Of a stretch of DNA of 64,000 bases, positions 6,603-33,523 are shown piece after piece; positions within the stretch are counted from its first letter, which is position 1, and each line of letters opens with the position of its first letter. The position numbers and the translations under genes are program-made. The notes beneath the pieces are model-generated. The model did no database searches. It worked only from the letters and a program-made list of their open reading frames with translations, and was not told where the DNA came from. The DNA comes from Modestobacter sp. DSM 44400. Its GTDB lineage: Bacteria > Actinomycetota > Actinomycetes > Mycobacteriales > Geodermatophilaceae. The stretch covers positions 62,001 through 126,000 of the forward strand of contig NZ_FNOZ01000004.1 of NCBI RefSeq assembly GCF_900107175.1. Reading direction: 5' to 3'.

Positions 6603-7474
6603 TCAGTCCCGGTCCGGCGCCAGCCCGGCGATCAGCGCGCTGACGTCGACCGCCCCGGGGTCGGGGAGCTGTCGCGCCGCGGCGTCCATGGTCTCCAGCA
6701 CCGCGGCGTCCAGCCGGTCGGGGACGCCGGCCGCCTGCAGCGCCTCCCGGATCAGCCGGGCATCCTTGGCCGCGCCGGTCAGCCCGAAGCTCACCGGGTG
6801 CTCCCCGCCGATCATGTTCGCGCCCTTTAGCTGCGCGTAAGGGGTGTCCAGCGGGCCGCCCGCTATCGCGTCCAGGAAGTGCTGCGGGTCCAGCCCCAGT
6901 CCGCGCGCGAGCGCGATCGACTGCGCGGCGCCGGCGGTGACCATGAACAGCCAAGCGTTGCAAGCCATCTTCAGCCGGCTCCCGGCGCCGGCCCCGCCCA
7001 GCCAGAGCGTCCGGCTGCCCAACGCGTCGAACACCGGGGCCAGCTGCTCGCGCGCGCCCTCGTCCCCAGAGGCCAGCAGCACCAGCGAGCCGTCCTCGGC
7101 CGGCTTCTTCGTGCCCAGCACCGGGCAGTCGACGAGGACCAGGCCCAGCTCGCCGGCGGTGGCGATGGTCGCGTCAGCACCGGCCATGCCGACGGTGGTG
7201 CACTGCAGCCACACACCGTGCCCGGCGCCGGCGCGGCCTGCCGGACGACGTCGACCGCGGCGTCCGCATCGAAGACCGTCGTCAACACGACGTGGGCACC
7301 GGTGGCAGCCTCCACCGGGGAGTCCAGGGTCTCCGCGCCGGTACCGGTCAGCGCTCGGGCCTTCGCCGCGTCGCGGTTCCACATCCGCACCGGGATGCCG
7401 GCCCGCCGCAGCGAGCCGACCATCCCTGCGCCCATCGTGCCGGTGCCGAGGACGGCGACCACGGGGAGCGTCAT
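6603..7474 (-). pseudogene. NAD(P)-dependent oxidoreductase (3-hydroxyisobutyrate dehydrogenase family), frameshifted
   Basis: The N-terminal Rossmann part (GTGTMGAGMVGSLRRAG; frame from 7474) and the rest of the enzyme (TTVGMAGADATIATAGELGL through SRLKMACNAWLFMVTAGAAQ to DVSALIAGLAPDRD) lie in two frames. They join near 7220-7226, where the coding strand reads GTGTGTGGCTGCAG; removing one TG repeat restores GTV-WLQCTTVG and a 289-aa protein of normal family length. The catalytic Lys region (SRLKMACNAW) is intact. Either a two-base slippage in a TG repeat has inactivated the gene, or the assembly is wrong there. The upstream frame preserves the G-x-G-x-x-G nucleotide motif, so the loss looks recent. 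Confidence 0.8.
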
Positions 7475-7541
7475 GTCTCCGATCCTGCAGCTCCCGGACC
7501 GCAGCGGCAGTGCGGGAGACCGGTAGCCTCGCCCGGAGCCC

Positions 7542-7613
7542 GCCCCATTAGCTCAGTGGTAGAGCACTCGCCTTGTAAGCGAAAGGTCGTCCGTTCAATC
7601 CGGACATGGGGCT
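7542..7613 (+). tRNA. tRNA-Thr (anticodon TGT)
   Basis: Acceptor stem 7542-7548 pairs with 7606-7612; the D arm is GCTCAGTGGTAGAGC; the anticodon loop CTTGTAA at 7572-7578 contains TGT; the T arm has GTTCAATCC. It reads codon ACA. CCA is not encoded (discriminator T, then CCG). It lies upstream of the monooxygenase gene on the same strand. Confidence 0.95.
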
Positions 7614-7674
7614 CCGCCCGGCGCTCCGGCGTCGCCACCTGGCCGAGCCGGAGGTGACATACGACACTGCTGCC

Positions 7675-9486
7675 ATGACCACCACCCTCGAGCAGAGCCC
7701 GGCCGCGACCGCCGTCCGGGGCTGGCTGTCCGACTTCGACGCCGCGCTCACCGCCGGTGACGCGGCGGCCGCCGCCGCGCTGTTCACCGAGGACTGCTAC
7801 TGGCGCGACCTGATCTCCTTCACCTGGAACATCACGACCGCCGAGGGGCGGCCGGCCATCGCCGACATGCTCGAGCAGACGCTGACCGGGACCCGCCCGC
7901 GCAACTGGACGATCACCCCCGGGGAAGAGCCGGCCGAGGCCGACGGGGTCACCGAAGCCTGGATCCAGTTCGAGACGGCGGTCGGTCGTGGCCGGGGGCA
8001 GCTGCGGCTGCGCGACGGCCGTGCCTGGACGCTGCTCACCACGCTCTACGAGCTCACCGGGCACGAGGAGCCGACGCGGGACCGGCGGCCCAAGGGCGCC
8101 GAGCACGGGATCCACCGCGACCGCGAGTCGTGGCTGGACCGGCGGGAGCGCGAGGCGCGCGAGCTCGGCTACGAGACCCAGCCGTACGTTCTGGTCGTAG
8201 GGGGAGGACAGGGCGGCATCGCCCTCGGTGCGCGGCTGCGCCAGCTCGACGTCCCGACCATCGTCATCGACAAGCACCCGCGGCCCGGGGACCAGTGGCG
8301 CAGCCGGTACAAGTCGCTGTGCCTGCACGACCCGGTCTGGTACGACCACCTGCCCTACGTCAAGTTCCCGGACAACTGGCCGGTGTTCGCCCCCAAGGAC
8401 AAGATCGCCGACTGGCTCGAGTCCTACACCCGGGTCATGGAACTCAACTACTGGTCCAACACGCGGGCCGTGAACGCCGCCTACGACGAGTCCACCGGGG
8501 AGTGGACAGTGACCGTTGAGCGCGACGGCATCCCGGTCGTCCTGCGCCCGCAGCAGCTCGTGCTGGCCACCGGGATGTCGGGCAAGCCCAACGTCCCCGA
8601 CTTCCCCGGCATGGACGTCTTCCGCGGCGACCAGCACCACTCGTCCGCGCACCCCGGCCCGGACGCCTACCGCGGCAAGAAGTGCGTCGTCGTGGGCTCG
8701 AACAACTCCGCCTTCGACATCTGCGGGGCACTGTGGGAGAACGGCGCGGACGTGACGATGGTGCAGCGCTCCTCAACGCACATCGTGCGCTCGGACTCGC
8801 TGATGGACATCGGACTGGGCGCCCTGTACTCCGAAGACGCCGTCGCCGCGGGCATGACCACGGAGAAGGCCGACCTGGTCTTCGCGTCGCTGCCCTACCG
8901 GATCATGCACGAGTTCCAGATCCCGCTGTACGACCAGATGCGGGAACGCGACAAGGACTTCTATGGGCGGCTGGAGGCTGCCGGCTTCGACCACGACTGG
9001 GGCGAGGACGGCTCGGGGCTGTTCATGAAGTACCTGCGCCGGGGCTCGGGCTACTACATCGACGTCGGCGCCGCGGACCTGGTGGCCAACGGCGACGTCG
9101 CCCTGGTCAGGGGCCAGGTCGACCACCTGACCGAGCACTCGGTGGTGCTCACCGACGGCACCGAGATGCCGGCCGACCTCGTCGTCTACGCCACCGGGTA
9201 CGGCTCGATGAACGGCTGGGCGGCGGACCTGATCTCCCAGGAGGTCGCCGACCGCGTCGGCAAGGTGTGGGGGCTGGGCTCGGACACCACCAAGGACCCC
9301 GGCCCGTGGGAGGGCGAGCAGCGCAACATGTGGAAGCCCACCCAGCAGGAGGCGCTGTGGTTCCACGGTGGCAACCTGCACCAGTCGCGGCACTACTCCC
9401 TGTACCTCGCGCTGCAGCTCAAGGCGCGCAAGGAGGGCCTCCCGACCCCGGTGTACGGGCTCCAGGAGGTTCACCACCGCAGCTGA
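7675..9486 (+). CDS. NTF2-like domain fused to flavin-containing monooxygenase
   Basis: 603 aa from ATG 7675. Residues about 1-140 form an NTF2/SnoaL-like domain (LSDFDAALTAGDAAAAAALFTEDCYWRDL). It is followed by an FAD-binding Rossmann fold with VVGGGQGGIALGARL (about residue 174) and RPGDQWRSRYKSLCLHDP, then an NADPH-binding motif VVVGSNNSAFDICGAL, and ATGY near the end. The stretch FRGDQHHSSAH resembles the FxGxxxH fingerprint of FMO/Baeyer-Villiger enzymes. The fused layout is a known subfamily of class B monooxygenases; the substrate is unknown. The ATG gives a natural start to the NTF2 domain, whereas an in-frame upstream ATG would fall inside the tRNA gene. Confidence 0.88.
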   Translation: MTTTLEQSPAATAVRGWLSDFDAALTAGDAAAAAALFTEDCYWRDLISFTWNITTAEGRPAIADMLEQTLTGTRPRNWTITPGEEPAEADGVTEAWIQFETAVGRGRGQLRLRDGRAWTLLTTLYELTGHEEPTRDRRPKGAEHGIHRDRESWLDRREREARELGYETQPYVLVVGGGQGGIALGARLRQLDVPTIVIDKHPRPGDQWRSRYKSLCLHDPVWYDHLPYVKFPDNWPVFAPKDKIADWLESYTRVMELNYWSNTRAVNAAYDESTGEWTVTVERDGIPVVLRPQQLVLATGMSGKPNVPDFPGMDVFRGDQHHSSAHPGPDAYRGKKCVVVGSNNSAFDICGALWENGADVTMVQRSSTHIVRSDSLMDIGLGALYSEDAVAAGMTTEKADLVFASLPYRIMHEFQIPLYDQMRERDKDFYGRLEAAGFDHDWGEDGSGLFMKYLRRGSGYYIDVGAADLVANGDVALVRGQVDHLTEHSVVLTDGTEMPADLVVYATGYGSMNGWAADLISQEVADRVGKVWGLGSDTTKDPGPWEGEQRNMWKPTQQEALWFHGGNLHQSRHYSLYLALQLKARKEGLPTPVYGLQEVHHRS

Positions 9487-9791: not shown

Positions 9792-10211
9792 TCACACCAG
9801 GACGACGTCGTTCCCGCGGACCGTCACCCCGACCGGAATCAGCGGGGACGTCGCCGGCCCCTCCCGCACCTCACCGGTGGCCGGGTCGAACGCCGACCCG
9901 TGGCAGGGGCAGCCCAGCCCGTCACCGGTGGGCCGCACCGTGCACCCCGCGTGCGGGCACGTGGCGTCGAACGCGGCCACGGTGCCGGCCGACGGCTGGG
10001 TGATGACCACCCGGCGTCCGTCGACCTCGAGCAGGTAGCCGCCCTCGACGGGGACGTCGGCCAGCGCCACCAGCACGTCGCCGCTGGCGACCCCGGTCAG
10101 CTCTGGGAGGTCGATACCGCCTCCGCAGCCGGCCAGCGCGAGCGCGCAGAGGCCGGCACCGCCGGCGATGAGCAGGCTCCGGCGGGACACGCAGGGATGC
10201 ACGGCCTGCAT
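9792..10211 (-). CDS. Rieske [2Fe-2S] lipoprotein with Tat signal
   Basis: 139-aa exported electron-transfer protein. The N-terminus has a twin-arginine motif (SRRSLLIAGG) and a lipobox LAGC with the lipidated Cys near residue 29. The Rieske cluster ligands are in CPHAGC and CPCHGSAF. The domain resembles QcrA-like or arsenite-oxidase-like small Rieske proteins, but no bc1 or oxidase genes flank it, so the partner is unknown. The ATG at 10211 is chosen because it directly precedes the signal; longer frames run into the tandem repeat. The gene ends 2 bp from the convergent dodecin gene. Confidence 0.9.
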   Translation of the reverse strand: MQAVHPCVSRRSLLIAGGAGLCALALAGCGGGIDLPELTGVASGDVLVALADVPVEGGYLLEVDGRRVVITQPSAGTVAAFDATCPHAGCTVRPTGDGLGCPCHGSAFDPATGEVREGPATSPLIPVGVTVRGNDVVLV

Positions 10212-10248
10212 CTTCCATGAGGGCAGCGCCTCGAAGCTGCACGAGCCC

Positions 10249-10488
10249 GCGCTCCGGAGGAGCGCTGTGTCCTGAGGGTGCGGGGGCCGGAGGCTCTCCA
10301 CCTGGGGGACACGCAACGGCTCCACGGAAGCCCGGGAAAGAACCGGGACCGCGGTGGAGTCCGTGGTGGATCTGCGCTCCGGAGGAGCGCTGTGTCCTGA
10401 GGGTGCGGGGGCCGGAGGCTCTCCACCTGGGGGACACGCAACGGCTCCGCGGAAGCCCGGGAACGGCTCGTGGCCGCGGTGGAGTCCG
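10249..10488. repeat. Two tandem copies of a ~125-bp direct repeat in non-coding DNA
   Basis: Bases 10249-10338 recur at 10374-10463 with a single mismatch (10324 versus 10449), and 10349-10363 recurs at 10474-10488, all with a period of 125. Each unit begins with an inverted repeat, GCGCTCC-GGA-GGAGCGC, able to form a hairpin. The repeat fills most of the 293-bp gap between the Rieske gene and DUF5313, both on the minus strand, so it sits in the Rieske leader region. No convincing ORF was found in it. Confidence 0.85.
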
Positions 10489-26178: not shown

Positions 26179-26808
26179 TCACCCGATGGGGTGAGCCCGG
26201 TTCCGCAGCAGGCCGAGTTCGGCCGTCAGGTTGGCCCGCGCCCGGTCGGTCCACTGCGCCGCGGTCTCCGGTAGCCGGTAGAGCGCCGGCAGCGCCAGCA
26301 ACTGCTGCAGGACGGCGGTGCGACCGGCGGTGAAGACCTCGTCGGACAGGTGCCCGTACTCCTCCCGCACCGCCGACGCGTAGGCGGCGTAGGCCTCGGC
26401 CGGTCCGGCCAGCACGGCGAGGTCGGCGTCGCAGAGCACCGCACCGTTGGCGTCGCCGGGCGCCGGGTCGTGCCCGGCGGTCAGCAGCACCAGCCGCTCG
26501 ACCTCCGTGCGCGTCGCGTCGTCCACCAGCCCGAGCAGGCCGATCCGGGCGCGGGCGGCGCTGACCCGCTCGTTGTCCTCGCGCGTCGGGTCGTAGGCGA
26601 CGTCGTGGTACCAGGCGGCGAGCCGGACGGCGGCCGGGTCGGCGGCGTGCCCGGCAAGCTCCCCGACGATGCCGAGCACTGCCGCCAGGTGAGCCAGGAC
26701 GTGGTAGCGGCGGTGCGGCTCGGACCACGAGCCAACGACCGCGGCCCACTCGGTCCGCGAGGTGGGGGAGTCGCCGGCGAGCTGAGCCCAGGTTGCGAAC
26801 GAGATCAT
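26179..26808 (-). CDS. HD-domain metal-dependent phosphohydrolase
   Basis: 209 aa. RRYHVLAHLAAVL provides the first His, RLAAWYHDVAYDP the His-Asp doublet, TAGHDPA a further His and CDADLAVLAG the distal Asp, matching the HD superfamily metal site of the predicted COG4339 group. Substrate unknown. ATG 26808 overlaps the stop of the upstream peptidase gene (ATGA), so the two form an operon and are translationally coupled. Confidence 0.88.
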   Translation of the reverse strand: MISFATWAQLAGDSPTSRTEWAAVVGSWSEPHRRYHVLAHLAAVLGIVGELAGHAADPAAVRLAAWYHDVAYDPTREDNERVSAARARIGLLGLVDDATRTEVERLVLLTAGHDPAPGDANGAVLCDADLAVLAGPAEAYAAYASAVREEYGHLSDEVFTAGRTAVLQQLLALPALYRLPETAAQWTDRARANLTAELGLLRNRAHPIG

Positions 26809-28076
26809 GCGACACCACAGCTGCGGACGGCGGTGAGCGCCAGCGCCCGGGCCACGTGTACCACCTCGGCGATCGGCACGTTCTCCCGAGGCGCGTGGGC
26901 CAGCCGCAGGTCACCGGGACCCAGGTGCAGCGTCGGAATGCCCGCGGCCGCGTAGAGCCGCAGGTCGGTGCCGGCCGGGAGTGCCTTCTCCACCGGGCGC
27001 GGACCGCCGGCGTCCACCGCCGCCTGCTGCACCCGCGGCAGCAGCGGGGAGTCCTGGAGGAGCTGTCCGCTGGCGAAGCTGCCGCCGACCCACTCGACCC
27101 GCACCGGGTGCCCGGACAGCCACGGGTGGTCGGCGCAGGCCCGGGCCACGGTCGACTCGAACTCCGCGCGCGCCTCCGACACCGCCTCGCCGACCCGGAC
27201 CCCGTAGCGGCCCTCGGCCACCAGCCGGTCGGGGACGGTGCTCGCCCAGTCGCCGGCCCGCAGCAGCCCGATGGAGATCCCGTAGGGCAGCTCGGTGCCG
27301 ACGAACCGGCCTTCGGTGCCGCGCTGCCGCTCGGCCTCGAACTGCCGCAGCGCCGCGTGCACGCGCTCGAACAGGGTGACCGCGCTGATCCCGGCGTCCC
27401 GCATCGCGCCGTGCGCGGCCAGCCCGATGACGGTCAGCCGGAAGGTCAGCGCCCCGGCGTTGGCGGTCATCACCGTGCCGGCGGTCGGCTCGGGGATGAT
27501 GCAGGCGGCACCCCGGTGCCCGCGGGCTAGGGTCGCCCAGGCGCCCAGCCCGCCGTCCTCCTCGCCGACGACGCTGTGCACCGCCAGCGGCCGGACCAGC
27601 CGCACGCCGGCGGCCTGCACCGCGCGGACGGCGCCGAGCGCGGCGACCAGCCCGCCCTTCATGTCGCAGGCGCCGCGTCCGTGCAGCAGCCCATCGGTGA
27701 CCCGCGGGGTGAACGGGTCGGCCGGCCACAGCGTCGGGTCGCCGGCCGGGACGACGTCCGTGTGCCCGCACAGCACCAGGCCGGGCTCGCCGTCCTCGAC
27801 GCCGGCCAGCGTGCCCACCACACCCCAGGCCTCAGTCCGGGTGACCTCCTGGCCGGGGGCGTCCTCGGCGCCCGCGGCCGCGAGCAGGTCGATCGGCCAG
27901 GCGTCGACGTCGGCGCCGTCCGCGGTCAGCCAGCCGGCGACCAGGTGCTGGGCCTCGGACTCCGCGGCCGTACCGCCGACCGACGGGACGGCGACCAGCT
28001 CGCGCAGCCGGTCGACCAGCCATTGTTCGTCCACGCACTCCAGGACCCGGGCCTCGGCGTCGGTCAGGTCCGCCAC
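26805..28076 (-). CDS. M20 family metallopeptidase/deacylase (ArgE/DapE-like)
   Basis: 423 aa. Zinc-site motifs: LVLCGHTDVVPAGD (first His and Asp), GRGACDMKGGLVA (bridging Asp), VVGEEDGGLGAW (catalytic Glu and ligand), CIIPEPT (Glu), and the late LGPGDLRLAHAPRE with His. The dimerisation domain sits in the middle (GLAAHGAMRDAGISA). Acetylornithine deacetylase-like, but several subfamilies share this pattern. GTG 28076 has CAGACT 6 nt upstream. It is the first gene of an operon with the HD protein. Confidence 0.9.
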   Translation of the reverse strand: MADLTDAEARVLECVDEQWLVDRLRELVAVPSVGGTAAESEAQHLVAGWLTADGADVDAWPIDLLAAAGAEDAPGQEVTRTEAWGVVGTLAGVEDGEPGLVLCGHTDVVPAGDPTLWPADPFTPRVTDGLLHGRGACDMKGGLVAALGAVRAVQAAGVRLVRPLAVHSVVGEEDGGLGAWATLARGHRGAACIIPEPTAGTVMTANAGALTFRLTVIGLAAHGAMRDAGISAVTLFERVHAALRQFEAERQRGTEGRFVGTELPYGISIGLLRAGDWASTVPDRLVAEGRYGVRVGEAVSEARAEFESTVARACADHPWLSGHPVRVEWVGGSFASGQLLQDSPLLPRVQQAAVDAGGPRPVEKALPAGTDLRLYAAAGIPTLHLGPGDLRLAHAPRENVPIAEVVHVARALALTAVRSCGVA

Positions 28077-28141: not shown

Positions 28142-28387
28142 ATGTCTGCTCCACCGCCTCCACTCGGCTCGTACCGGAACCCCGCCGGGAGCGCCGGCAC
28201 CTACTGGCGGGACGGGCGGACTGGACCGGACACCTGCAGCAGCCAGGCCGAGACCTGGGCCTGGGACTCCGGGATCACCGACGGGCCGGGCCGCGAGGCG
28301 TCCAGGATCACAACAAGATGGGGGCAGCGCCCTCGAAGAGCGCGAGGGCGGTTCAACCGGGGTCACGCTCATCGGAGAGGTGATTGA
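28142..28387 (+). CDS. Small uncharacterised ORF, possibly a truncated gene
   Basis: 81 aa starting MSAPPPPLGSYRNPAGSAG; ATG 28142 has TACCGT 7 nt upstream, the leaderless pattern used by genuine genes here. The first 50 residues have acceptable GC3 coding character, whereas the Arg-rich tail (TTRWGQRPRRARGRF) looks like readthrough of non-coding DNA. The N-terminus resembles the Pro-rich start of actinobacterial membrane proteins. It may be the remnant of a gene broken near 28310, at the left edge of the 28.3-32 kb unit. No function assigned. Confidence 0.35.
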   Translation: MSAPPPPLGSYRNPAGSAGTYWRDGRTGPDTCSSQAETWAWDSGITDGPGREASRITTRWGQRPRRARGRFNRGHAHRRGD

Positions 28388-28448
28388 GAGTGAGACGCCA
28401 CGATTCGACTCGTTCGGTCACCGACCCGTCCCCTGGGGTGACAACGGC

Positions 28449-29177
28449 GTGGACCTAGGGCGATGGACAGCGCTGTTCCCCGCCGACGCGGCCCTGACGC
28501 CTCGGGACGTACAAATCCGTGACGCTGCGTGGGTCGCTCGATGCGTCGGTCGGGGCAGCGCGTCCCCGCTCGGCCCGCAGGACGTGACTGCGCTGGCCGA
28601 CCGGATCACCCCGACCCGGTTCCGGCGGGACGAGCCGGTATTCGGCGGCGCCGCCGGTGACCGCCCTGGCGTGTGGATCGTCCGTTCCGGTCACGTCGAG
28701 CTCGGCGTCGCGACACCGCGCGGAGGGGTGGTGATCGGGTTGCGGCGCCCCGGTGACGTCGAGGGCGACATCCCCCTGCTGCTCGGGATCCCCACCCCGT
28801 ACTCGGCCCGTGCGCTCGCCGACACCGTGTGCCTGTACCTGTCGCCGACCGCCTTCGAGGAGTTGCTCGGCCGGCACCCGGCATTGGCCCGGCGTTGGTT
28901 GTCGAGCGTGGCGCAGCGGCTGGCCACCAGCCACGGCCGACTGATCTCCCTGCTCGGCCGCCCCCTGGTGGCGCAGCTGGCCGGCCTTCTGGTCGACGAG
29001 TCCGAGGACGGGACGGTCGAGCTGCCCCAGCGCACTCTGGCGGCGATGCTCGGCGTGGCGCGGCCCTCACTCAACAAGGTGCTCAAGGAACTGGAGCGGC
29101 GAGGCCTCGTGGCACTCGGCTACGCCTCGATCCGGCTCCTCGACGAGGACGGCCTCCGGGGGGTGGCCGACGGCTGA
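28449..29177 (+). CDS. Crp/Fnr family transcription regulator
   Basis: 242 aa. A cyclic-nucleotide-binding-like beta barrel (FRRDEPVFGGAAGDRPGVWIVRSGHVELGV ... GDVEGDIPLLLGIP) is followed by a long dimer helix and a C-terminal winged HTH (LPQRTLAAMLGVARPSLNKVLKELERRGLV). No FNR-type N-terminal Cys cluster is seen, so an iron-sulfur sensor is unlikely. The start is uncertain: GTG 28449 (GGGGTGA 7 nt before it) or GTG 28380, which adds 23 residues. It converges on the AhpD/radical SAM/DoxX operon and is its probable regulator by position. Confidence 0.85.
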   Translation: MDLGRWTALFPADAALTPRDVQIRDAAWVARCVGRGSASPLGPQDVTALADRITPTRFRRDEPVFGGAAGDRPGVWIVRSGHVELGVATPRGGVVIGLRRPGDVEGDIPLLLGIPTPYSARALADTVCLYLSPTAFEELLGRHPALARRWLSSVAQRLATSHGRLISLLGRPLVAQLAGLLVDESEDGTVELPQRTLAAMLGVARPSLNKVLKELERRGLVALGYASIRLLDEDGLRGVADG

Positions 29178-29244
29178 GGCAACCGCCCCGCCCCGCCCAC
29201 GAGAGCCGCCCACTCGATCACCAGGTCGTACCTTCGCTGCTGGT

Positions 29245-29676
29245 CTATCGCTCGCCTCGCACATCTGGCGATTCCGGTTGCGGCTGGTCGGTCCTGGCCC
29301 CCCGTGAGCGGGCCACGGCGACGTGACAGAGCGCGCCGAAGCCGATCGCCAGGGCGGCGAAGAAGGCGGCGGTGGAACCGTTGCCGCCCAGCCAGTTCCA
29401 GCTGCGGCCTGCCTGGACCAGTTGCAGGAGGCTCACCGCACCGCTGAGGCCGCTGGCGGCGGCGAGGAGCGACGCGCGTCCGAGGCGGGTGCCGAGAACC
29501 CCGAGGAGGGCCACCACCACCAGTGCCGCGACAGCGGCCGGGGGCACCGTGACGAAGCGCACCGCGTCGTTGCCGGGCACCACGGCGGACACGGTCGCCA
29601 CCCCGGCGGCGGCACTGAGGCCGTAGCCGGCCTGGAAGAGCTGGCGCCGTCCCGTCTCTGGGTCGGGGGCGTTCAC
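29245..29676 (-). CDS. Small four-helix membrane protein, last gene of the radical SAM operon
   Basis: 143 aa, not recognised. Four hydrophobic segments: LSAAAGVATVSAVV, PAAVAALVVVALLGVLG, LLAAASGLSGAVSLLQLV and STAAFFAALAIGFGALCHVAVA, with a charged C-terminal tail. GTG 29676 overlaps the DoxX stop codon by 4 bp (GTGA), so it is translationally coupled to DoxX and probably acts with it in the membrane. Confidence 0.72.
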   Translation of the reverse strand: MNAPDPETGRRQLFQAGYGLSAAAGVATVSAVVPGNDAVRFVTVPPAAVAALVVVALLGVLGTRLGRASLLAAASGLSGAVSLLQLVQAGRSWNWLGGNGSTAAFFAALAIGFGALCHVAVARSRGARTDQPQPESPDVRGER

Positions 29677-30224
29677 GACACCCTCAGCAGCACGCGTGCC
29701 ACCCGGCCCGGCGATCGCCGCCACACCGGTCGCAGCTGGCCGTCCATGCCGGCGCTCCGACCGGCCGCCGTGGTCAGCACGACGACGTGGGCCGCGAACA
29801 TCAGGTAGTACGACCACGGCCACTCGTTCGGCGCGTTCAGCACCGACAGGGTGATGGCTGTGGTCTGGACGATGCCCATGGCGGCCCAGAACCGGGTGGC
29901 CAGTCCGACCAGGAGAAAGGCCCCGATGCTGGCTTCGAGCAGCAAGGTCAGGTAGCCGAAGAAGACGAAGTGAGGGAGCACGAGGTTCTCGATCAACCAA
30001 CTGAACGGCGGCAGGACGGGGTGGTCGACCGCGTACCTGGTGTACCTGAACAGTCCCCGGCCCGCTTCCTGCCCGAAGTCCGGCGGGGTCTTCCAGCCCA
30101 CGCCCTGGATCCACAGCAGACCGAGTGCGATCCGGACGGCCGCGAGCGTCGCCCGGGCGGCCTTCCCTTGGTCAGGCCCCTCGACGGCTGGGGCTGTCAT
30201 CGGGTCGCTCGTCGCTCTGGCCAT
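29673..30224 (-). CDS. DoxX-like membrane protein
   Basis: 183 aa. ALGLLWIQGVGWKTPPDFG, then FGYLTLLLEASIGAFLLVGLATRFWAAMGIVQTTAITLSV and WPWSYYLMFAAHVVVLTTAAGR give the four-helix DoxX/TQO small-subunit pattern. Family members interact with thiosulfate-quinone chemistry or membrane redox complexes; mycobacterial DoxX works with superoxide dismutase and a thiol protein. Third gene of the operon, 66 bp downstream of the radical SAM gene. ATG 30224 with GAGG upstream. Confidence 0.82.
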   Translation of the reverse strand: MARATSDPMTAPAVEGPDQGKAARATLAAVRIALGLLWIQGVGWKTPPDFGQEAGRGLFRYTRYAVDHPVLPPFSWLIENLVLPHFVFFGYLTLLLEASIGAFLLVGLATRFWAAMGIVQTTAITLSVLNAPNEWPWSYYLMFAAHVVVLTTAAGRSAGMDGQLRPVWRRSPGRVARVLLRVS

Positions 30225-30290
30225 GGGACCTCGCCGATCGGGGTGGAAGAGGGTGGTGCAGACACCCGACCGGGTGCCGCTGGATCACGC

Positions 30291-31118
30291 CTAACGGATG
30301 TTGAGGGTGCTGTCCGCGCCCTCCGGCCGGGCGCCGAGGACCGTCAGCATCGCCTGCACCGGCCGCTGGAGCGGGCGGACCGTCCGGGTGAGCAGCAGGT
30401 CGGTGTCGAGCACACCACCGGTGACCGTCGGCCCGAAGGGGGACCAGAATGCGCCGTCCGCGGTGACGGTGAGTTCGGGGGGGAGATCCAGGTACCGGGC
30501 GACCACGCCCATGTCCCCGGTCCGCGCGCGACCACGCCGGAGGATCGGACGGACGATGTGGTCGTCGTCGGTGATACCGAGGTTCCGGTGTAGCGCGCAG
30601 AGCCGGGCGAGGTCGTCGGCGTCCGGGTCCTCGACTGTGGTGGCGATGCGCACGCCGATGCCGTGCCGCAGGAGAGCTGGTACCGCGTCGACCACCTTGC
30701 GGAAGTTCTGCGGCCCGCGCATGACGTCGTTGGCCACGGGGTCGGGGTGGTCCAGCGAGATCTGCAGGGTGACATCGGCGTCGGCAAGCGGAGCCATCCG
30801 GTCGAGCAGCGCCCGCCGGAACAGCGTGCCGTTGGTAAGGACGAGGACGGGCAGCACGCGGGAGAGCTCGAGCAGCAGCTCGGGCATGTGCGGGATGAGA
30901 AAGGGTTCGCCGCCGGTGATCCCCAGCTGGGTGAACCCGAGTGCGCGGGCCTCGTGCGCGAGGTCGACCATGGTGTCCGGGTCGAGTTCGCGCCGGCTGA
31001 CCAGTGGGCCAGACTCGGTGAGGCAGTAGGTGCAGGTCAGGTTGCAGTGGTAGTTGCTGTAGAGCCACAGTCGGTTGCCGAGGGATCCCTTGGCCAGGGC
31101 CTGCGCAAGGGCGGTCAC
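30291..31118 (-). CDS. Radical SAM protein, single [4Fe-4S] cluster, no SPASM domain
   Basis: 275 aa. The CxxxCxxC cluster CNLTCTYC is at residues 25-32, the GGE motif in GITGGEPFLIP near 68, and the SAM/strand motifs VLVLTNGTLF and LQISLDHPDP follow. The C-terminal region has no further Cys cluster, so it differs from SPASM/Twitch peptide-modifying enzymes such as PqqE and MftC. Substrate unknown; no precursor peptide was found next to it. GTG 31118 overlaps the stop of the AhpD-like gene (GTGA), a tightly coupled pair. Confidence 0.88.
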   Translation of the reverse strand: MTALAQALAKGSLGNRLWLYSNYHCNLTCTYCLTESGPLVSRRELDPDTMVDLAHEARALGFTQLGITGGEPFLIPHMPELLLELSRVLPVLVLTNGTLFRRALLDRMAPLADADVTLQISLDHPDPVANDVMRGPQNFRKVVDAVPALLRHGIGVRIATTVEDPDADDLARLCALHRNLGITDDDHIVRPILRRGRARTGDMGVVARYLDLPPELTVTADGAFWSPFGPTVTGGVLDTDLLLTRTVRPLQRPVQAMLTVLGARPEGADSTLNIR

Positions 31119-31708
31119 AGGTCCTCCCGGAGCAGGCGTTCCCGCACGTCCAGCGACGTCGGCAGGGCCAACGCGGTGGCGTAGCGGTTGAGCATCACCG
31201 TGGTGGCGACCAGCAGGGTCAGCTCGACCAGGCGGGCATCGTCGACGTCGAGCACCTGCCGCGCCTGCCTGATGTCGGCCTCGGCCCCCTGCGCCACGGC
31301 GTCGCACCAGGCGACGAGAGCCCGCTCCTCCTCGGCGGTGAACACGTCACCGACCGGCAGCTCTCCGCGGAGTGCTCGAACTTCCCGCACGTTCAACCCC
31401 GAGTCCAGCGCCACGACGCTGTGCGCCTCGGTGCAGTAACGGCAGCCCATCACCGCAGAGGTGCGCAGGATGACTATTTCCTTCTCGCGCGCCGGTATCC
31501 ACGACGGCCCGAGCACCGCACCGAGGAAGGGAAGGGTGGGGCCCACCAGCTCTGGCACGTGAGCCAGCGAGGCTATGACCGGTCCGGGATCGCCGGAGGA
31601 GAAGTGCTGGCGCAGGAGCAGGCCCGCCGACGCCGCGTCGATGAGCGTGATCCGCGGCGCGCCGCCCGGCCGCGTCGGCACGTCCACGGGCGGTACGGCA
31701 GCGCTCAT
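31115..31708 (-). CDS. AhpD/carboxymuconolactone decarboxylase-like protein
   Basis: 197 aa. The thiol centre CRYCTEAH (Cys89, Cys92, His96) is the AhpD-type CxxCxxxH active site, used in peroxide reduction or disulfide exchange rather than lactone decarboxylation. Flanks REKEIVILRTSAVMG and ALDSGLNVREVRAL fit the family. First gene of a four-gene operon (AhpD-like, radical SAM, DoxX, membrane protein); ATG 31708 has GACGAGGAG 8 nt upstream. Context suggests redox chemistry at or near the membrane. Confidence 0.88.
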   Translation of the reverse strand: MSAAVPPVDVPTRPGGAPRITLIDAASAGLLLRQHFSSGDPGPVIASLAHVPELVGPTLPFLGAVLGPSWIPAREKEIVILRTSAVMGCRYCTEAHSVVALDSGLNVREVRALRGELPVGDVFTAEEERALVAWCDAVAQGAEADIRQARQVLDVDDARLVELTLLVATTVMLNRYATALALPTSLDVRERLLREDL

Positions 31709-32049
31709 GCTCTGACTCCTCGTCCCGGTGACTCCCCATCATCGCCGGGCCGGCGGTGTGCGCGGCACCGGACAGTCAGCTGGATGACCATCCGAGGGCC
31801 GGCCGGTCATGGTGTCCGACCGGCTGCGCCGCGCTGACAGGTACATGGACGTGTCCTGCGGACCGCCGGCGCATGGCTCCGCCATCCGCCGGGAGAGTAC
31901 TCTGGGGATGTCCGGACCGGGCGACCTGTGTCCCCGGGCTCCACTAGTAACTGCCGCCGCGGAACACCGCCCCGACCTCGGTCGGGGGCCTGGAGCTGCG
32001 GATGTGCAAACCGCCGCGAGGCGACCAGCGTCCGGTCCGGACCCGAACG
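31709..32049. other. Intergenic region upstream of the AhpD-like operon
   Basis: 341 bp separate the divergent operon start from the zwf terminator hairpin. I see no convincing ORF: frames open here are Arg/Pro/Gly-rich and lack supported starts. It must hold the promoter of the AhpD-like operon, and any Crp/Fnr box, but no clear Crp-like palindrome could be picked by eye. Confidence 0.5.
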
Positions 32050-32101: not shown

Positions 32102-33523
32102 TCAGCCCTCGGTCTGGCCCAGCAGCCAGCCGCACGGGCCGGGCAGCTCGTTGGCGGCCACCGGCCCCCACGAACCTCCGGCGTAGGGCTGCACCGCCGG
32201 CCGGTCGTCGAGCACCGGCTGGATCGCGGCCCAGGCCGCGGACAGTCCTGCACTGGTGGTGAACAGCGACCGGTCGCCGGTGATCACGTCGTGGATCAGC
32301 GAGACGTAGGGCGGGAGTGGATCGCCACCCGGGATGTCCGCCAGGTCCAGGCTGGTGGTGGCCTCGGCCAGCGACAGGTCTGGCCCGGGCTCCTTGGCGA
32401 TCAGGTGCAGGTCCAGCGATCCGGCGCCGGACAGCGACAGCGACACCACGTTGCCGTACCCGGGCAGCTGGGTGACCGGGCCGTCGGGCTTGTGCAGCAG
32501 CAGGCTCACCCGCTGCTCGCCGGCGGCCAGCTTCTTACCGGTGCGCAGCAGGAAAGGCACGTCCCGCCACCGATCGGTGTCGATCATCAGCCTGGCGGCC
32601 ACGAAGGTGTCGGTCTGCGAGTCGTCGGCCACGCCGTCGATGTCGGTGTAGCCCTCGAACTGCCCCAGGACGACGTCCTGGGGCGTCAGCGGCCGGAAGG
32701 CCGCCAGCACCGACTCGCGGGCGTCCTGCAGGTCGGCCGGCCGCAGCGACACCGGCGGCTCCATGGCCACCTCGGCGGCGACCTGGAACAGGTGGGTGAC
32801 CAGCATGTCCAGGGTGGCGCCGGTGGCGTCGCAGAACTCCGCCCGCTGGGCGACGTCCAGGGTCTCCGGGACGTCGATCTGCACCTGGCGGATGTGCTCG
32901 CGACTCCAGATGTGCTCGAACAGCCCGTTCGCGAAGCGCAGCACGTGCAGGTCCTGGGTGCCCTCCTTGCCCAGGAAGTGGTCGATCCGGAAGACCTGCT
33001 CCTCCTCGAGCACCGACAGCACGAGCTCGTCGAGTTCGCGGAAGGACTCCGGGGAGGTGCCGTAGGGCTTCTCGTAGACCACGCGCGACCCCTTGGCCAG
33101 GCCGTGCTCGGCCAGGCCCCGGGTGATACCGGCGAACGCGGTCGGTGGGATGGCCAGGTAGTGGACCAGCTGCGCCTCCTCGCCGAGGTCCTCGCGGGCC
33201 TCGGCCAGCACGTCGAGCAGGCTGCCGGGGTCGTCGGAGGCGAACCCGCCGCCGGCGAACCGGAGCCGGGAGCTGAACTCGTCCCACGGGCCCTCGTCGG
33301 GGTGCGGGCCGAACTCGGCCAGCGAGTCGTGCACCCGTCCGGCGAAGTCCTCGTGGGACACGTCGCCGCGGCCGTTGCCGACCAGCCGCCAGTCGGCGGG
33401 CAGCAGGCCGTGCTGGGCGAGCTGGTAGAAGGCCGGCAGGACCATCCGGTGCGCGAGGTCGCCGGTGGCCCCGTAGAGCACGAAGACGGTGGGGGGCAGG
33501 TCGGTGCTGCCGTTGTCGGGCAC
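32102..33523 (-). CDS. zwf: Glucose-6-phosphate 1-dehydrogenase
   Basis: 473 aa; oxidises glucose-6-phosphate to 6-phosphogluconolactone, first step of the oxidative pentose phosphate pathway. Coenzyme fold VLYGATGDLAHRMVLPAFYQL, substrate/active-site RIDHFLGKEG with the catalytic His, and YEKPYG are present. It is slightly shorter than the usual 490-515 aa, which fits the second, more divergent actinobacterial G6PD group. GTG 33523 with GAGGAG 5 nt upstream. Stand-alone: no tal, opcA or pgl gene adjacent. Confidence 0.92.
   Translation of the reverse strand: MPDNGSTDLPPTVFVLYGATGDLAHRMVLPAFYQLAQHGLLPADWRLVGNGRGDVSHEDFAGRVHDSLAEFGPHPDEGPWDEFSSRLRFAGGGFASDDPGSLLDVLAEAREDLGEEAQLVHYLAIPPTAFAGITRGLAEHGLAKGSRVVYEKPYGTSPESFRELDELVLSVLEEEQVFRIDHFLGKEGTQDLHVLRFANGLFEHIWSREHIRQVQIDVPETLDVAQRAEFCDATGATLDMLVTHLFQVAAEVAMEPPVSLRPADLQDARESVLAAFRPLTPQDVVLGQFEGYTDIDGVADDSQTDTFVAARLMIDTDRWRDVPFLLRTGKKLAAGEQRVSLLLHKPDGPVTQLPGYGNVVSLSLSGAGSLDLHLIAKEPGPDLSLAEATTSLDLADIPGGDPLPPYVSLIHDVITGDRSLFTTSAGLSAAWAAIQPVLDDRPAVQPYAGGSWGPVAANELPGPCGWLLGQTEG

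What the first reader, a model, noticed from the sequence alone, without database searches (positions are those of the whole stretch)
28142..32049. Candidate undescribed redox system: Crp/Fnr regulator facing an AhpD-like / radical SAM / DoxX / small membrane protein operon
Four minus-strand genes are tightly packed (two 4-bp overlaps, one 66-bp gap) in the order thiol protein with CxxCxxxH, radical SAM enzyme without SPASM, DoxX, unknown four-helix protein. A Crp/Fnr regulator converges on them. DoxX and AhpD families are linked to membrane and thiol redox defence. A radical SAM partner with no peptide precursor in sight does not fit known AhpD or DoxX units.
Basis: partly seen in the sequence, partly recalled or inferred. 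Interest (0 to 1): 0.68.

Follow-up and report, generated by a model that had tools for sequence, protein, structure and literature searches.

The report
Conserved AhpD-like/radical-SAM operon with DoxX
Four adjacent genes in a soil actinobacterium form a real, scattered gene set built around an AhpD-like thiol protein and a radical enzyme, distantly related to an unexplained gene cluster of tuberculosis bacteria and more likely to make or modify a small molecule than to be a plain redox-defence system.

Summary
In detail: four minus-strand genes (29245-31708) with two 4-bp overlaps and one 66-bp gap encode a CMD/AhpD-like protein (CxxCxxxH), a single-cluster radical SAM enzyme (rSAM), DoxX and a small membrane protein. 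The Crp/Fnr regulator does not belong: close orthologues sit in two same-genus genomes without the operon. The core is CMD-rSAM. Of 396 phylum genomes (own included) the same 9 hold both; at 34 tabulated loci the two adjoin in 29, 27 with a 4-bp overlap. DoxX lies within 6 kb in 27 of 34, the membrane protein or a look-alike in 14. The membrane protein passes the NCBIfam 'Rv1678 family' cut-off; the rSAM falls below the 'Rv1681 family' cut-off. One locus (L122) joins rSAM, DoxX and membrane protein to FadE16- and Rv1680-like genes, linking the set to the unexplained Rv1678-Rv1681 cluster. A TIGR04282 ('arsenosugar biosynthesis') transferase lies within 6 kb at 12 of 34 loci and is fused to CMD at one more, but not at the window. 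I favour a small-molecule modification pathway with a membrane redox partner, at about even odds. The substrate is unknown; arsenic fits some hosts only.

The parts
31115..31708 (-). CMD/AhpD-like thiol protein, 197 aa, CxxCxxxH; first gene of the operon
   Evidence: PF02627 40.5 bits over cut-off 23; C89, C92, H96 invariant in 27 aligned sequences; nearest solved chains are CMD/AhpD family
30291..31118 (-). Single-cluster radical SAM enzyme, 275 aa (GTG start overlapping the CMD stop by 4 bp); relative of the Rv1681 family, below its cut-off
   Evidence: PF04055 75.7 bits; NF049973 210 bits, cut-off 380; tree; model pLDDT 87.7
29673..30224 (-). DoxX/DoxD-family membrane protein, 183 aa
   Evidence: PF04173 28.7 over 22.7 and PF07681 24.2 over 23.6 bits
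29245..29676 (-). Small four-helix membrane protein of the Rv1678 C-terminal family (GTG start overlapping the DoxX stop by 4 bp)
   Evidence: NF049986 61.7 bits over cut-off 50 (scanned from 29679); four helices in the model

Best explanation
The four genes are one operon. Shown: its core is a nearly always paired AhpD-like dithiol protein (CMD) and a single-cluster rSAM enzyme, usually with a DoxX protein nearby and often with an Rv1678-type membrane protein. Inferred: the rSAM uses a 5'-deoxyadenosyl radical to modify a small molecule, probably one bearing a thiol or another soft heteroatom. The CMD CxxCxxxH dithiol keeps that substrate or product reduced, or reduces an oxidised intermediate. 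DoxX plus the membrane partner exchange electrons between this chemistry and the quinone pool. In part of the hosts a TIGR04282 transferase and a GT2 glycosyltransferase act in the same pathway. The Crp/Fnr gene is an unrelated neighbour.
For: CMD and rSAM of this type occur in the same 9 of 396 phylum genomes, own included; in G417 the rSAM is a 100-residue piece at a contig end. CMD adjoins rSAM at 29 of 34 loci, 27 with a 4-bp overlap; of the 5 misses 2 are cut by contig ends and 2 (L061, L065) are second rSAM copies in genomes with a complete pair elsewhere. DoxX lies within 6 kb at 27 of 34; the membrane protein at 9 and its look-alike c8 at 5 more. TIGR04282-type genes lie within 6 kb at 12 of 34 and one is fused to CMD in L069 (158 bits, cut-off 134); in the 9 phylum genomes, not picked for it, TIGR04282 lies within 4 kb in 5. 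GT2 lies within 8 kb at 11 of 34. In G175 and G143 a sister-branch rSAM is next to TIGR04282 (about 80 bp between matches; 7 bp between called genes in L170). No shared small peptide gene found. The fold is near rSAM enzymes of several kinds, among them BlsE and viperin, which act on small molecules.
Against: No substrate or product is known and nothing was measured. No TIGR04282 or GT2 gene was found near the window operon or the other Geodermatophilaceae loci tabulated. The fold comparison does not separate small-molecule from peptide-modifying enzymes (SkfB Z 19.6, SuiB 19.1, BlsE 19.1, viperin 18.3). The quinone role of DoxX is family knowledge, recalled. The genome of L063 has the rSAM but no CMD of this type (best 45.6 bits), and G256 has an rSAM piece at a contig end with no CMD found in a 340-contig assembly. 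DoxX is not within 6 kb at 7 of 34 loci, two of them cut just after the rSAM start. Searches scored only the best 6 or 8 candidates per genome.
Confidence: 0.5

Rival explanations
1. Redox-defence unit: CMD is a peroxidase, DoxX a membrane redox partner, and the rSAM makes or repairs a component of that defence.
For: CMD keeps the AhpD-type CxxCxxxH residues and its profile matches solved AhpD chains. In M. tuberculosis, Cmr, rv1676 (peroxiredoxin-like domain) and dsbF (rv1677) lie together, and Cmr loses DNA binding on nitrosation (PMC5499769, passages seen); by locus number these adjoin Rv1678.
Against: Recurrent neighbours are sugar-transfer genes and one is fused to CMD. The window's Crp regulator is not part of the unit. 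Patchy occurrence (9 of 396 genomes) does not suit a general defence.
Confidence: 0.25
2. Organoarsenical (arsenosugar-like) biosynthesis: the rSAM attaches an adenosyl or sugar carbon to methylated arsenic as ArsS does, CMD keeps arsenic trivalent, and transferases finish the sugar.
For: TIGR04282 near or fused at some loci. In the sister rSAM branch an ArsM-like methyltransferase (NF040538, 342 bits, cut-off 500) is the next gene at L043. ArsM-type genes occur in 11 of 16 genomes searched. ArsS adenosylates arsenic (PMC12159101, passages seen).
Against: The rSAM scores 44.8 bits against the ArsS model with cut-off 300. No ArsM match at E 1e-20 in G334, G260, G075, G028 or G206. ArsM lies on the contig of the CMD-rSAM pair only in G126, about 7 kb away; assemblies are fragmented. 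Nucleoside-phosphorylase genes were found only at L066, L068 and L070, and the L066 one is an ordinary MTA phosphorylase.
Confidence: 0.15
3. Maturation of a ribosomal peptide: the rSAM modifies a precursor peptide.
For: Nearest folds include the peptide-modifying enzymes SkfB and SuiB, and SkfB is the best solved match by sequence; the DoxX protein has a weak HvfX (copper RiPP) match, 17.8 bits against cut-off 80.
Against: No SPASM domain reported by Pfam and no small ORF shared between loci.
Confidence: 0.06
4. Chance grouping of independent genes.
For: DoxX and the membrane protein change position and strand between loci, DoxX being on the other strand at 7 of 27.
Against: The same 9 of 396 genomes hold CMD and rSAM, and the 4-bp overlap is kept at 27 of 34 loci.
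Confidence: 0.02

Closest known systems
M. tuberculosis Rv1678-Rv1681 cluster (NCBIfam NF049986, NF049984, NF049985, NF049973)
   Same: DoxX plus the Rv1678 C-terminal membrane domain (NF049986 over cut-off) near an rSAM of the same larger group. L122 carries a window-type rSAM piece, DoxX, the membrane protein, and FadE16-like and Rv1680-like genes in a row.
   Different: The window rSAM lacks the N-terminal extension that in three Rv1681-type proteins matches TusA below cut-off (PF01206), and scores under the Rv1681 cut-off. DoxX and the membrane domain are separate genes here but one gene in L123, a genome I take for a mycobacterium. A CMD gene is present, and no FadE16- or Rv1680-like gene was found beside it.
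Arsenosugar-type rSAM clusters (ArsS TIGR04167, AhpD-like TIGR04169, transferases TIGR04282/TIGR04283)
   Same: AhpD-like protein plus rSAM; TIGR04282 near or fused at some loci. That ArsS and TIGR04169 proteins go with these transferases is taken from the model names and recall.
   Different: rSAM 44.8 bits against cut-off 300; CMD 23 bits against TIGR04169 cut-off 120; the one GT2 scored reaches 48 of 182 bits against TIGR04283; ArsM mostly not linked.
AhpD / CMD enzymes (AhpD; debrominase Bmp8)
   Same: CMD family and CxxCxxxH
   Different: Tied to this rSAM type in all 9 phylum genomes that hold it; the AhpD-domain model TIGR00778 is narrowly missed (25.5 against 27.8)
DoxX-SodA-SseA complex and thiosulfate:quinone oxidoreductase (recalled, no call)
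   Same: DoxX/DoxD-family membrane subunit
   Different: The partners here are CMD and rSAM; the DoxD equivalog NF041179 is not met (24.5 against 300)

Membership tests
Rv1681 family radical SAM protein (NF049973) | Score over curated cut-off 380 | tested here: not met
   210.4 bits, profile 67-308 of 326
Rv1681 family radical SAM protein (NF049973) | Same larger rSAM group as Rv1681-type proteins | tested here: inconclusive
   44 rows (window, Rv1681 and metallophosphatase types) lie apart from 3 own-search outgroup rSAMs at 87/94, below the strong-support mark; Rv1681 plus metallophosphatase types form a branch of their own (97/100); outgroup branches are long
Rv1678 family membrane protein (NF049986) | Score over curated cut-off 50 | tested here: met
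   61.7 bits
DoxX / DoxD (PF07681, PF04173) | Score over gathering cut-offs | tested here: met
   24.2 over 23.6 and 28.7 over 22.7
CMD family (PF02627) | Score over gathering cut-off 23 | tested here: met
   40.5 bits
AhpD-type dithiol enzyme | CxxCxxxH conserved | tested here: met
   C89, C92, H96 invariant in 27 aligned sequences
AhpD family core domain (TIGR00778) | Score over curated cut-off 27.8 | tested here: not met
   25.5 bits
Alkylhydroperoxidase AhpD | Peroxidase activity | not testable with these tools
   needs purified protein
ArsS arsenosugar rSAM (TIGR04167) | Score over curated cut-off 300 | tested here: not met
   44.8 bits
ArsS-associated AhpD-like protein (TIGR04169) | Score over curated cut-off 120 | tested here: not met
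   23 bits
Arsenosugar-type gene cluster | TIGR04282 transferase linked | tested here: inconclusive
   12 of 34 loci plus one fusion, but not at the window itself
Arsenosugar-type gene cluster | ArsM in the host genome | tested here: inconclusive
   11 of 16 genomes at E 1e-20, 8 of 16 over cut-off; none in 5; in the window's own genome 3 matches, none over cut-off
RiPP maturation system | Conserved precursor peptide gene | tested here: not met
   none of 144 small ORFs at 14 loci shared at E 1e-4; very short or diverged peptides could be missed
RiPP maturation system | SPASM or auxiliary-cluster cysteines in the rSAM | tested here: not met
   only C174 beyond CX3CX2C; no SPASM domain reported by Pfam
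Crp/Fnr-regulated five-gene unit | Regulator conserved with the operon | tested here: not met

The most novel reading that the evidence does not exclude
CMD-rSAM-DoxX-membrane protein is the shared core of an unrecognised pathway that builds a heteroatom-bearing (sulfur, selenium or arsenic), often glycosylated small molecule, and the unexplained M. tuberculosis Rv1678-Rv1681 cluster is a derived form of it.
Probability: 0.25. Interest if true: 0.75.

Novelty: new variant of a known kind. Interest (0 to 1): 0.52.

Why it matters
It gives an uncharacterised conserved gene family a defined two-enzyme core that can be tested in a harmless soil bacterium. It also ties that core to a cluster of the tuberculosis bacterium for which the paper listings seen here showed no biochemical function (the Rv1681 papers were not opened). 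A TIGR04282-CMD fusion and repeated linkage to glycosyltransferases turn 'unknown redox operon' into a specific prediction: a modified, perhaps sugar-linked metabolite.

Tried and rejected
Crp/Fnr as part of the system: rejected. RiPP: no shared small ORF. Direct membership in ArsS or Rv1681 families: cut-offs not met. Arsenic as the sure substrate: no ArsM match in 5 of 16 genomes. Membrane protein fold: no Foldseek match at E 0.001 or better; VIA-align shows generic four-helix bundles, best Z 11.6, where up to about 13 may mean nothing for helical bundles. Promoter and terminator scan: none found, as expected from shuffles (0.3 and 0.8). Paper searches that listed no description of the CMD-rSAM-DoxX grouping; on Rv1681, Rv1678 and neighbours; on the TIGR models: (listings only). 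My first crude gene callers missed genes and were replaced by a codon-model caller, which still missed the Crp gene. Weak membrane-protein matches inside longer DoxX genes (L049, L066) were not counted. I did not compare CMD and rSAM trees, nor look at where the Crp orthologues lie in G008 and G021.
Full report
Observation. The window holds four minus-strand genes: CMD/AhpD-like (31115-31708), radical SAM (30291-31118), DoxX (29673-30224) and small membrane protein (29245-29676), with two 4-bp overlaps and a 66-bp gap. A Crp/Fnr gene (about 28380-29177, +) converges on them. A glucose-6-phosphate dehydrogenase gene (32102-33523) lies upstream, and an M20 peptidase gene (26805-28076) beyond the regulator.

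The genes. The first protein passes the CMD cut-off (PF02627) and keeps CxxCxxxH, invariant in 27 aligned sequences. The second has CX3CX2C and one further cysteine; Pfam reports no SPASM domain. It matches the NCBIfam Rv1681 family at 210 bits, cut-off 380. DoxX passes two Pfam cut-offs. The small membrane protein passes NF049986, 'Rv1678 family membrane protein'.

Is it a unit? The search of named genomes with the rSAM alignment found 27 loci. One (L074, 32% identity over residues 5-71) is probably another rSAM and was left out, leaving 26: mostly Actinomycetota (Geodermatophilaceae, Pseudonocardiales, Thermoleophilaceae, Solirubrobacteraceae, Acidimicrobiia), with one MAG each labelled Rhodospirillales and Eremiobacterota. 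In 396 phylum genomes, own included, the window-type rSAM scores at least 395 bits in 8, and G417 has a 100-residue piece at a contig end. The window-type CMD scores at least 264 bits in 9, the same 9; the next score is 79.7. These searches scored only the best 6 or 8 candidates per genome. Of the 10 genomes over the NF049986 cut-off, 7 are among the 9. An eighth, G256, has a short rSAM piece at a contig end (L119), and no CMD was found in it. G206 has an Rv1681-type rSAM (197 bits) and G324 none at E 1e-30. Of the 9, G099 and G436 have no NF049986 match.

I tabulated 34 loci: the window, L039-L041, 24 of the 26 (L053 and L057 dropped as copies of L040 and L041), and six from the phylum searches (L115, L117, L119, L122, L125, L126). 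CMD adjoins rSAM in 29 of 34, with the 4-bp overlap in 27, and in the order CMD then rSAM in 28; L126 has the reverse order. The five misses are L119 and L122 (rSAM cut by the contig end) and L061, L063, L065. The genomes of L061 and L065 hold a complete CMD-rSAM pair elsewhere (L173, L174); that of L063 has no CMD of this type (best 45.6 bits). DoxX lies within 6 kb in 27 of 34, on the other strand in 7; the L062 call is weak (17 bits) and the L049 one is beside the Rv1681-type copy. The membrane protein lies within 6 kb in 9, its look-alike c8 in 5 more. That c8 is homologous is my reading of an alignment, not a test.

The regulator. Its profile matched only the window's own DNA among the loci. 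Among 58 relatives it has close orthologues in G008 (81%) and G021 (76%); the next match is 38%. In neither genome was a window-type rSAM found, nor in any of the 22 other same-genus genomes, some of them incomplete. Of 12 other genomes of the family, G029 and G031 have the rSAM and G028 keeps a remnant. So the operon is patchy and the regulator independent.

Links to known clusters. L122 carries an rSAM piece, DoxX, the membrane protein, a FadE16-like gene (NF049984, 406 bits, cut-off 600) and an Rv1680-like gene (NF049985, 227 bits, cut-off 400). L123, from a genome I take for a mycobacterium, has a DoxX gene that carries the Rv1678 domain (74 bits over 50), genes 50% and 42% identical to the L122 FadE16-like and Rv1680-like genes, and an rSAM that I call Rv1681-type from tree and context. 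Of the three proteins so called only the L042 one was scored: 351 bits, cut-off 380. Both rSAM types sit together in L049, and G028 has the Rv1681 type beside the remnant. In the tree the window, Rv1681 and metallophosphatase types lie apart from 3 outgroup rSAMs (87/94, not strong); Rv1681 and metallophosphatase types form a branch (97/100). The window type is not shown to be one clade, and long branches are flagged. One row, L111, was labelled metallophosphatase by score alone and falls with the Rv1681 type. The N-terminus of the three Rv1681-type proteins matches TusA under the cut-off (14.5 to 21.7 against 28.6).

Neighbours. A TIGR04282-type gene (cluster c1 without CMD) lies within 6 kb at 12 of 34 loci and a GT2 gene within 8 kb at 11. 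Membership rests on clustering, a BLAST check that found 11 of the 12, not L067, and profile searches that hit these places in L059, L060, L063, L064, L066 and G099, G260, G276, G334, some below the 134-bit cut-off (L060, L064, L066, G276). In L059 TIGR04282 scores 139.5 bits; its GT2 only 48 of 182 against TIGR04283. In L069 TIGR04282 and CMD are one protein (158 bits over 134 plus PF02627 48.9), followed by the rSAM. In the 9 phylum genomes, not picked for this, TIGR04282 lies within 4 kb of CMD or rSAM in 5 (G099, G260, G276, G334, G417), and these genomes hold one or two full-length copies. I estimate about 0.5% per genome by chance, a rough figure that ignores shared ancestry. In ten further genomes that I picked, it is at the locus in 6. 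The sister rSAM branch is next to TIGR04282 in G175 and G143. L170 also has GT2 and phosphorylase genes and, read by eye, MFS and MerA-like genes. At L043 the next gene is ArsM-like.

Arsenic test. ArsM-type genes (NF008823, E 1e-20) occur in 11 of 16 genomes, over the cut-off in 8, and were not found in G028, G206, G334, G260, G075. Only in G126 is one on the contig of the pair, about 7 kb away. So arsenic fits some hosts, not all.

Structure. The rSAM model (pLDDT 87.7) is nearest to SkfB, SuiB, BlsE and viperin (Z 19.6 to 18.3), so the fold does not decide between peptide and small molecule. By sequence the best solved match is SkfB (4e-17), then 8wm2 (7e-12), named AbmM (Z 14.7), which I recall as a thiosugar enzyme. 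The membrane protein gave only generic helical bundles.

Literature. PMC5499769 (passages seen): Cmr binds the cmr-rv1676 intergenic region, activates rv1676 and is impaired by nitrosation. PMC12159101 (passages seen): rSAM enzymes form carbon-arsenic bonds in arsenosugar and arsinothricin biosynthesis. Other papers were seen as listings only; two searches listed none.

Verdict. A real, conserved operon and a new variant of the Rv1678/Rv1681-type gene set. The regulator should be dropped and the 'redox defence' label held open; small-molecule modification is the best reading at about even odds.

Noticed in passing
L042 (G028) 9995-10279: A window-type rSAM has lost its catalytic 5' part; about 62 C-terminal residues remain (87% identical) beside DoxX and membrane genes, and no CMD is seen in the locus: a decaying operon.
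   Followed up: partly
L044 (own genome, G000:C113), rSAM 7037-8728: The window's genome carries a paralogue of the metallophosphatase-linked rSAM branch near a GT2 gene and, read by eye, MFS and MerA-like genes; a weak ArsM match (80 bits) lies about 5.5 kb away.
   Followed up: partly
G276:C115, G417:C368, G126:C250, G256:C92: ArsM-type matches with one in-frame TGA, which would fit selenoproteins.
   Followed up: no
G000:C103:4118-4768: ArsM-type match (207 bits, below cut-off) in the window's own genome with one in-frame TAG.
   Followed up: no
window 28380-29177: The Crp/Fnr protein has two cysteines, as M. tuberculosis Cmr does (PMC5499769); whether they correspond was not tested.
   Followed up: no
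L042 6050-7051, L049 11803-12762, L062 9595-10503: PhnD-type substrate-binding genes next to ABC ATPase genes beside rSAM loci; the L062 one matches the 'selenate' model at 144 bits against cut-off 250.
   Followed up: partly
window 30291-31118, C-terminus: Most of the 28 aligned rSAMs end in a similar tail such as DSTLNIR or DTTLGIR.
   Followed up: no
L055 2-622 and G126:C250:2182-2841: An arsenite-methyltransferase-like gene piece at the contig edge about 7 kb from a CMD-rSAM-DoxX-membrane operon.
   Followed up: partly
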